From: Solirubrobacterales bacterium
GTDB lineage: Bacteria > Actinomycetota > Thermoleophilia > Solirubrobacterales > Solirubrobacteraceae
NCBI GenBank assembly: GCA_019240655.1
Contig: JAFAXX010000125.1
Span: forward strand, 1 to 38,641
Length of the DNA stretch: 38,641 bases
Direction: 5' to 3'
In this document: piece by piece, positions 34,520 to 38,641 of the stretch
Layout: every line of letters begins with the position of its first letter
How positions within the stretch are numbered: position 1 is the stretch's first letter
Notes under the pieces: model-generated
The model's database searches: none
What the model was told of the DNA's origin: nothing
Seen by the model: the letters and a program-made list of their open reading frames with translations, nothing else
Made by a program: the position numbers and the translations under genes

Positions 34520-34537
34520 GCATGCAAAGTTGCATGC
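34520..34537. promoter_or_regulatory. 18-bp palindrome upstream of the LysM gene
   Basis: GCATGCAA, centre AG, TTGCATGC: perfect arms 56 nt before ATG 34594. It is either an operator or a terminator stem for the upstream methyltransferase; an A-rich stretch (TGAAAAG) follows. Confidence 0.45.
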
Positions 34538-34593: not shown

Positions 34594-35598
34594 ATGCGCT
34601 TTCGAGTCCTGCCCTTCATCGTCGCGGCCGTAGCGCTGGTTGTGCCCTCGGCCGCGTCCGCGTACTTCGCGCACACGATCTCGCGCGGGGAGTCCCTGTA
34701 TTCGATCGCCGCGGCTGACGGCCTGAGCGTCGGCCAGCTCGCCGCGGCCAACGGGCTCTCCGCGGGGTCGCAGCTGATCGCCGGCCGCACCCTGCAGATC
34801 CCGCCGCGGAGCGCGGGCGCCACGTCGTACGCGGCTCCGGCGAGCACCGGGGAGGGCGCCGCCCAGACCTGCGACGGCGACGGGGACAGCGACGACGTCG
34901 GTTGCGCGACCGCGGTGGCGAGTCCCACGGGCTCCGTCGCGAGCAGCGGCGGGGGCTCCTACGTGGTCCAACCCGGCGACACCCTGAGCGCGATCGCCGC
35001 CCGCGCCGGGATCAGCGTCAGCAGCCTGGCCGCCGCCAACGGCATCAACCCGCGCGGCGTGCTGCTTTCCGGCAGGGCGCTCCGGCTCGCCGGCTCGCCG
35101 GCTGCGACGTACGTGTCGACCGGCTCAGCCGCGACCTCCCAGCCGGTCGGCGCGTCCGCCCAGGGCTCGGTCACCGGCCCGCCCTACCCGACTCCCGAGC
35201 GGCTGAGCGCGTCGACGATCGGCCAGGTGGCCGCGAACCAGGGTGTCTCGCCATCGCTCGCCGACGCGATCGCCTGGCAGGAGAGCGGCTTCAACAACGA
35301 CCTCGTCTCGAGCTCCGACGCGCGCGGGATCATGCAGATCCTGCCCGGTACCTGGCAGTACATCCAGGACTCGCTCAACCCGGGCACGCCGCTGGCGCCC
35401 GCTTCGGCGATCGACAACGTCCGCGGCGGGGCGCTGCTCCTGCGCTCGCTGCTCAACTCCACCGGCGGCGATTCGACGCTGGCCGCCGCCGGGTACTACC
35501 AGGGCCTGCCCTCGGTCGAGCGCCACGGAATGTTCCGCGACACGCAGCAGTACGTCAGAGACGTGATGATGCTGCGCCAGGAGTTCGGCGGCGGTTGA
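34594..35598 (+). CDS. secreted LysM / lytic transglycosylase-like protein
   Basis: 334 residues: signal peptide (FIVAAVALVVPSAASA), LysM 1 (AHTISRGESLYSIAAADGLSVGQLAAANGL, about 27-66), a Ser/Gly-rich spacer with an Asp-rich patch, LysM 2 (YVVQPGDTLSAIAARAGISVSSLAAANGI) and a C-terminal SLT domain. The SLT domain has Glu in AIAWQESGFNNDLVSSSDARGIMQILPGTW and YYQGL. It should bind peptidoglycan and cleave its glycan strands outside the cell. ATG 34594 lies inside a GCGCATGCGC palindrome; TTGACT 7 nt upstream is a weak -10 candidate. The gene is bordered by GCATGC-centred palindromes on both sides. Confidence 0.88.
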   Translation: MRFRVLPFIVAAVALVVPSAASAYFAHTISRGESLYSIAAADGLSVGQLAAANGLSAGSQLIAGRTLQIPPRSAGATSYAAPASTGEGAAQTCDGDGDSDDVGCATAVASPTGSVASSGGGSYVVQPGDTLSAIAARAGISVSSLAAANGINPRGVLLSGRALRLAGSPAATYVSTGSAATSQPVGASAQGSVTGPPYPTPERLSASTIGQVAANQGVSPSLADAIAWQESGFNNDLVSSSDARGIMQILPGTWQYIQDSLNPGTPLAPASAIDNVRGGALLLRSLLNSTGGDSTLAAAGYYQGLPSVERHGMFRDTQQYVRDVMMLRQEFGGG

Positions 35599-35610
35599 TA
35601 CGGGTGGTGT

Positions 35611-35682
35611 CGGGGGCGCGCATGCGCGCCCCCGGCGCTCGCCGCATGCGGCGAGCGCGGCTGGGGCGCATGCGCCCCAGCC
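35611..35682. repeat. array of three abutting 24-bp perfect palindromes
   Basis: Three units follow without a gap: 35611-35634, 35635-35658 and 35659-35682. Each is a perfect palindrome with the same central octamer CGCATGCG and different 8-nt arms: CGGGGGCG with CGCCCCCG, GCGCTCGC with GCGAGCGC, and GGCTGGGG with CCCCAGCC. As RNA, each makes a 10-bp stem with a CAUG loop. The array begins 12 nt after the LysM gene stop and ends 7 nt before the ilvC -10 box. Confidence 0.92.
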
Positions 35683-35689
35683 TCCCAGA

Positions 35690-35695
35690 TAGGCT
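35690..35695 (+). promoter_or_regulatory. -10 box for leaderless ilvC
   Basis: TAGGCT lies 6 nt before ATG 35702. The usual -35 zone falls inside the third palindrome. Confidence 0.45.
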
Positions 35696-35701
35696 CCACC
35701 C

Positions 35702-38641
<2,940 letters not shown>

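What the first reader, a model, noticed from the sequence alone, without database searches (positions are those of the whole stretch)
35611..35682. Three directly abutting 24-bp perfect palindromes with one shared core and three unrelated arms
Seen directly: units at 35611-35634, 35635-35658 and 35659-35682 are each perfect 24-bp palindromes, with no spacer and an exact 24-bp pitch. All have the centre CGCATGCG; the 8-nt arms differ completely but stay self-complementary. Simple duplication would copy the arms, so either pairing is selected (hairpin or cruciform) with a fixed core read by a protein or loop, or some process generates palindromes around the core. The array separates a cell-wall hydrolase gene from ilvC and covers the ilvC -35 zone. 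I know no named element of this form.
Basis: seen in the sequence. Interest (0 to 1): 0.82.

Follow-up and report, generated by a model that had tools for sequence, protein, structure and literature searches.

The report
Hairpin arrays with perfectly coupled arms
Some soil bacteria carry, mostly just behind genes, rows of three or more back-to-back 24-letter DNA palindromes whose centre never changes and whose arms change freely but always in matched pairs, which suggests an undescribed family of dispersed hairpin-forming DNA elements.

Summary
Confirmed, and larger than reported. Window 35611-35682 is three abutting perfect 24-bp palindromes. It is one copy of a dispersed element found in four genera of one Solirubrobacterales family. 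I collected 83 arrays (267 units). Pitch is always 23-25 bp, mostly three units (up to six), centre always YRCATGYR, arms diverse yet about 99% paired. In 36 arrays, 330 pair cells changed on both sides and none on one side; no G-U pair occurs. Arrays at matching sites in different species show 181 two-sided against 4 one-sided changes. Arrays cluster just behind stop codons and between convergent genes. The constraint is therefore on a DNA-level hairpin/cruciform with a CATG tip. The best reading is a REP-like, probably mobile or once-mobile, non-coding hairpin array. Its stems appear to be rewritten by arm-to-arm copying (quasipalindrome template switching) and/or selected for exact Watson-Crick pairing. 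No GTAG/CGTC tag of the kind that defines REPs was seen, Y1 transposase is missing from six of seven array-bearing genus genomes, and no U-tract follows the hairpins. Mobilising enzyme and host function are unknown. I found no published description of this form.

The parts
35611..35634 (.). palindrome unit (unit 3 in the element's own orientation), CGGGGGCG-CGCATGCG-CGCCCCCG; the same 24-mer occurs in all three arrays of this genome
35635..35658 (.). palindrome unit (unit 2), GCGCTCGC-CGCATGCG-GCGAGCGC
35659..35682 (.). palindrome unit (unit 1), GGCTGGGG-CGCATGCG-CCCCAGCC; overlaps the expected -35 zone of ilvC
35620..35625 (.). invariant core GCATGC (hairpin tip CATG plus closing G-C pair), unit 3
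35644..35649 (.). invariant core GCATGC, unit 2
35668..35673 (.). invariant core GCATGC, unit 1
35683..35686 (-). 5' flank of the element read on the minus strand: GGGA (family consensus GGRA)
35604..35610 (-). 3' flank of the element read on the minus strand: ACACCAC, a variant of the consensus (G)AACAsC
34594..35598 (+). LysM + SLT transglycosylase gene; its stop codon lies 12 bp before the array
35702..36697 (+). ilvC (ketol-acid reductoisomerase); its start lies 19 bp after the array
35690..35695 (+). TAGGCT, a -10-like hexamer about 7-12 bp before the ilvC ATG, conserved in array-free relatives
   Evidence: inspection

Best explanation
The feature is one copy of a dispersed non-coding DNA element: a short oriented sequence (GGRA-[hairpin]x3-GAACA) made of three, sometimes four to six, abutting 24-bp perfect palindromes. 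SHOWN by comparison: (1) each unit can form a 10-bp hairpin or cruciform arm with an invariant tip (CATG, closed by G-C or A-T, inside an alternating YRCATGYR); (2) stem sequence is free except for self-complementarity; (3) changes come in matched pairs, including single-pair steps; (4) copies lie mostly just behind stop codons, are kept at some sites between species and even genera, and are absent at others. INFERRED: the hairpin or cruciform DNA form is the functional unit and its tip is read by a trans-acting protein (probably the unknown mobilising or maintaining enzyme). INFERRED: arms stay perfect because a mutation in one arm is soon copied to or erased from the other by intramolecular template switching at the extruded hairpin, with or without added selection for pairing. 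Arms therefore drift faster than their flanks while the pairing stays exact. At gene ends the hairpins may also block or bound transcripts, but that role is not shown.
For: Recurrence: 3 arrays in the own genome. In 28 genus genomes the triple pattern gives 48 matches in 7 genomes, nearly all palindromic (the known non-palindromic one is G014:C67). It is found in 24 of 232 order genomes, 4 genera of one family, and in none of the sampled class genomes outside the family except one non-palindromic match. Regularity: 83 arrays, 267 units, spacings 24 (138), 23 (29), 25 (17). Core: with the middle unit left free, palindromic middle units in 6 genomes were all GCATGC except one ACATGT; one damaged copy was seen (G153:C41). 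Covariation: 1080 cells, 99.3% paired, 330 two-sided and 0 one-sided changes, score 0.838 against 0.183 in shuffles and at most 0.144 when slid. Paralogs in G155: 31 two-sided, 0 one-sided, neighbours mostly zero or one pair apart. Matching sites between species: 181 two-sided, 4 one-sided of 456 pairs. Arm divergence exceeds flank divergence in most clear ortholog pairs (e.g. 8 of 24 pairs changed against flanks about 89% identical, L028/L353). Position: 53 of 66 within 30 bp of a gene 3' end; convergent 26/78 against 16/175 baseline junctions, p=6e-6. Dispersal: an identical three-unit array at two unrelated sites of G025 (L336, L347); array-free syntenic ilvC and uvrC sites in relatives. 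Template switching that perfects quasipalindromes is an established process in E. coli (PMC7202029).
Against: No mobilising enzyme was found. Clean element ends with a target duplication were not defined. The shared G025 array is a single case in a draft assembly. Persistence at the same sites across species and genera (citE-maoC, uvrC, L325/L354/L457) argues that many copies are old and inherited, not recently moved. Template switching is inferred from pattern only, and strong selection for exact pairing in very large populations could give the same pattern. The genus genomes are drafts except two single-contig ones (G012, G016), which have no arrays.
Confidence: 0.6

Rival explanations
1. 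RNA-level element: tandem hairpins at mRNA 3' ends that act as bidirectional, U-tract-free terminators or protect mRNAs from exonucleases; pairing is selected in RNA and the CAUG tip is a tetraloop.
For: Strong bias to positions just behind stop codons and between convergent genes; very stable RNA fold, z -6.3; no strand preference, as expected for symmetric hairpins.
Against: Not one G-U pair in 1080 cells, although RNA helices tolerate them; only 2 of 21 mismatched pairs are G-T. No U-tract: 2 of 46 inbound reads have 4 or more T in the 8 nt after the array; no terminator hit. 12 of 78 arrays lie between divergent genes. Flanks are oriented independently of gene strand.
Confidence: 0.22
2. 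Canonical REP/REPIN element mobilised by a RAYT (Y1 transposase).
For: Palindromic, extragenic, dispersed, near gene 3' ends, tandem clusters, oriented flank.
Against: Y1_Tnp is absent from G025, G009, G010, G003, G014 and G027 and present only as a partial match in G000. No GTAG or CGTC tag was seen in the flanks. REP families are defined by conserved stem sequence (PMC3733652), which is absent here.
Confidence: 0.05
3. Double-stranded operator sites: each palindrome binds a homodimer that reads the core, and the outer arms are by-products.
For: Fixed palindromic core and fixed 24-bp pitch (about 2.3 helical turns) suit side-by-side dimers.
Against: A dimer that reads the core does not need arms of changing sequence to stay exactly self-complementary over 10-12 pairs. 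Location behind genes and between convergent genes is unusual for operators.
Confidence: 0.06
4. Pure selection on a DNA hairpin or cruciform landmark (for example for a chromosome-structure, replication or recombination protein), inherited vertically and not mobile; paired changes arise by ordinary compensatory mutation.
For: Arrays kept at the same sites between species and genera; array-bearing genus members all fall in one supported half of the uvrC tree.
Against: Almost no intermediates (0 of 330, 0 of 31, 4 against 181) and arms diverging faster than flanks in most ortholog pairs. Identical array at two unrelated sites of one genome, and per-genome families of similar arrays, point to copying between sites.
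Confidence: 0.2

Closest known systems
Repetitive extragenic palindromes (REP, BIME, REPIN), mobilised by RAYT (PMC3733652, PMC3116915, PMC2817692)
   Same: Short dispersed palindromes outside genes, biased to gene 3' ends and convergent gene pairs, hairpin-forming, often clustered.
   Different: REP families keep a stem sequence and a GTAG or CGTC tag and are linked to Y1 transposases. Here the stem sequence is free, the tip is fixed, units abut at a fixed pitch, and Y1 transposase is missing from six of seven array-bearing genus genomes.
Double-hairpin elements and repetitive hairpin-forming elements of fungal, algal and sponge organelle genomes (PMC2800124, PMC2670323)
   Same: Dispersed GC-rich or palindromic hairpins, also as double or triple hairpins, considered mobile or selfish; Volvox palindromes share a loop motif.
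   Different: Sponge elements keep the stem and vary in the loop (PMC2800124), the reverse of the present case. No near-perfect stem coupling of this kind was reported in the passages I read.
Quasipalindrome template-switch mutagenesis (PMC7202029)
   Same: Turns imperfect inverted repeats into perfect ones by copying one arm from the other; would produce two-sided changes.
   Different: Known as a mutational hotspot mechanism in reporters and single genes, not as the upkeep of a dispersed repeat family.
Tandem intrinsic terminators (from general knowledge)
   Same: GC-rich hairpins behind genes, sometimes in tandem.
   Different: No U-tract, exact Watson-Crick stems, fixed tip, copies also between divergent genes.

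Membership tests
REP / REPIN (GTAG or CGTC superfamilies) | Dispersed extragenic short palindromes | tested here: met
REP / REPIN (GTAG or CGTC superfamilies) | Conserved stem sequence within a genome's family | tested here: not met
   132 distinct 7-nt arms in 267 units; partial families of related arms in G153 and G155
REP / REPIN (GTAG or CGTC superfamilies) | Unpaired GTAG or CGTC tag at one end | tested here: not met
   flank consensus GGRA before and GAACA after
REP / REPIN (GTAG or CGTC superfamilies) | Cognate RAYT / Y1 transposase in the genome | tested here: not met
   PF01797 absent from 6 of 7 array-bearing genus genomes; drafts, so absence is not proof
Intrinsic transcription terminator | GC-rich hairpin followed by a U-tract | tested here: not met
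Intrinsic transcription terminator | RNA 3' ends map to the hairpin | not testable with these tools
   no transcript data
Known structured RNA family (Rfam 15) | Covariance-model match above the gathering score | tested here: not met
   only sub-threshold chance hits
Conserved structured RNA (any) | Helices tolerate G-U as well as G-C and A-U | tested here: not met
   0 one-sided standard changes in 1080 cells
Mobile hairpin element (DHE/RHE-like) | Presence/absence differences at syntenic sites and identical copies at unrelated sites | tested here: inconclusive
   empty syntenic sites and one identical pair L336/L347, but also long site persistence
Mobile hairpin element (DHE/RHE-like) | Defined ends, target duplication or transposition intermediate | not testable with these tools
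   no near-identical strains with and without a copy were at hand

The most novel reading that the evidence does not exclude
A mobile or maintained DNA element in which hairpin form and CATG tip are heritable but stem sequence is not: an unknown enzyme or a replication template switch repeatedly re-synthesises one arm from the other, so that hundreds of hairpins change sequence freely and stay perfectly paired. This would be a repeat family conserved in structure only, outside REP, MITE and terminator categories.
Probability: 0.3. Interest if true: 0.87.

Novelty: new variant of a known kind. Interest (0 to 1): 0.77.

Why it matters
It gives a natural system in which hundreds of independent units record how inverted repeats evolve. 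Matched arm changes almost without intermediates make the question 'selection for pairing or arm-to-arm copying?' directly testable by counting. It also suggests an unknown protein that reads a CATG hairpin tip, and shows that sequence-based repeat finders miss repeat families conserved only in structure. The arrays may break assemblies: one relative's contig ends in a fold-back exactly at such a site.

Tried and rejected
Chance palindromes: rejected by recurrence, pitch and reversed-pattern controls. The 19 reversed-control matches in G180 are a coding direct repeat with core CGTACG, unrelated. RAYT/IS200-type mobilisation: not supported. Rfam: nothing. G014:C67 triple match: direct, not palindromic, repeats. 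Literature searches on GCATGC palindromes, Thermoleophilia/Solirubrobacter repeats and tandem palindromes gave no description of this form.

Full report
WHAT IS THERE. Window 35611-35682 holds three abutting perfect 24-bp palindromes, each centred on GCATGC, between a LysM/SLT transglycosylase gene (stop 12 bp before) and ilvC (start 19 bp after). They are the longest perfect palindromes in the window. The sequence folds as single-stranded DNA or RNA into three 10-bp hairpins with a CATG loop.

IT RECURS. The own genome (4.06 Mb, draft, 191 contigs) has two more triplets: one between a divergent HpcH/HpaI-type lyase gene and a MaoC gene, and one between the convergent ends of a GH79-like gene and uvrC. 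One outer unit, CGGGGGCGCGCATGCGCGCCCCCG, is the same in all three; the others differ. In 28 genomes of the genus the triple pattern gives 48 matches in seven genomes, against 6 for the reversed pattern. At least one of the 48 (G014:C67) is a direct repeat, not palindromic. In 232 genomes of the order it occurs in 24, in four genera of one family. In a class-wide sample the only match outside the family is not palindromic.

ANATOMY. From 83 arrays and 267 units: centre-to-centre spacing is 24 bp (138), 23 (29) or 25 (17), with no other value within an array. 67 arrays have three units; in genus g37 four to six occur. The core is GCATGC (256) or ACATGT (11), preceded by C or T (two G exceptions), that is YRCATGYR. 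Over the first ten pairs 95% of units are perfect. There are 132 distinct 7-nt arms. Leaving the middle core free in six genomes still finds only GCATGC or, once, ACATGT in palindromic middle units, so core conservation is not a search artefact. One damaged copy was seen (G153:C41). Outside the hairpins there is a weak oriented flank, GGRA before and (G)AACAsC after. Its orientation shows no bias relative to gene strand (11 against 11).

ARMS CHANGE ONLY IN PAIRS. In an ungapped alignment of 36 arrays from several genera, 1080 pair cells are 99.3% Watson-Crick paired. 330 cells differ from the commonest pair on both sides and none on one side; there is not a single G-U pair. The covariation score is 0.838, against 0.183 in shuffles and at most 0.144 in slid structures. 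Within one genome (G155) middle units depart from their consensus in 31 pairs on both sides and 0 on one side, nearest relatives mostly differing by zero or one pair. Between species, arrays with matching flanks differ in 181 pairs on both sides and 4 on one side, out of 456; a few of these comparisons rest on short or weak flank matches, and comparisons that share a locus are not independent. In most clear ortholog pairs the arms diverge more than the flanks, for example 8 of 24 pairs against flanks about 89% identical over 150 bp each side (L028/L353); L477/L479 is an exception with 2 of 24.

WHAT THIS SAYS ABOUT MECHANISM. RNA helices under selection pass through G-U pairs; their complete absence, the exactness, and the symmetry of the tip speak for a DNA-level hairpin or cruciform. 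The near absence of intermediates says either that both arms change in one event, or that half-changed units are removed very efficiently. Copying one arm onto the other by template switching at an extruded hairpin is an established mutational process in E. coli (PMC7202029) and predicts this pattern, as well as fast neutral drift of stems. The tip is a loop and cannot be repaired this way; its conservation therefore needs selection, most simply a protein that reads it. These last steps are inference.

WHERE COPIES SIT. With gene calls from my own simple codon scorer: 26 convergent, 40 codirectional, 12 divergent, 3 overlapping a called gene. Convergent sites are enriched about five-fold over other junctions in the same loci (p=6e-6). 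53 of 66 arrays with a facing gene end lie within 30 bp of it. REPs have a similar distribution (PMC3733652). No U-tract follows (2 of 46).

HISTORY. LysM-ilvC synteny is kept without the array in several relatives (L392, L393, L397, L399, L401, L402, L407), and the uvrC site is empty in most genus members but filled in G000, G025 and G010. I cannot say that the ilvC copy is unique to this lineage among array-bearers, because G009, G010 and G025 show no ilvC match in their drafts. Some sites are shared by species and even genera (L325/L354/L457), so many copies are old. The seven array-bearing genus members all lie in one supported half of a uvrC tree. An identical three-unit array lies at two unrelated places of G025, and G153 and G155 hold families of similar arrays, which points to copying between sites. 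No Y1 transposase is detected in six of the seven array-bearing genus genomes.

COMPARISON WITH KNOWN KINDS. It works like REP, DHE or RHE elements in being a dispersed hairpin repeat, but fails REP-defining features (conserved stem, GTAG/CGTC tag, RAYT) where tested. Sponge hairpin elements show the opposite conservation pattern: stems kept, loops variable (PMC2800124). I found no paper that describes this form, within an open-access library only.

VERDICT. It is a new structural variant of dispersed palindromic repeats, with an unusually clean paired-change record. The enzyme, the exact ends and the host function remain open.

Noticed in passing
L424 (G019:C11, end of contig at the uvrC 3' end): The contig ends in a fold-back palindrome (GGTTTAGGCAGCGG-CGCATGCG-CCGCTGCCTAAACC) exactly where relatives carry the array, which suggests that arrays stop sequencing or assembly and are under-counted in drafts.
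   Followed up: partly
G009, G010, G025 whole genomes: Three array-rich relatives give no convincing ilvC match although ilvC is found well in most of the genus; perhaps lost at assembly breaks.
   Followed up: no
window 34520-34537: GCATGCAA-AG-TTGCATGC, a short inverted repeat with the same GCATGC hexamer at both ends, just before the LysM/SLT gene; not a member of the arrays.
   Followed up: no
window 35690-35695 and L392-L412: TAGSCT-like hexamer conserved about 7-12 bp before the ilvC ATG in most relatives, as expected of a -10 element of a leaderless transcript.
   Followed up: partly
G180:C3:459735-460532: A long 24-bp coding direct repeat with core CGTACG explains the only high count of the reversed control pattern.
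   Followed up: yes
L356 (G010:C219) and L469 (G156:C68): Arrays that overlap high-scoring open reading frames, perhaps insertions inside or at the very end of coding sequence.
   Followed up: no
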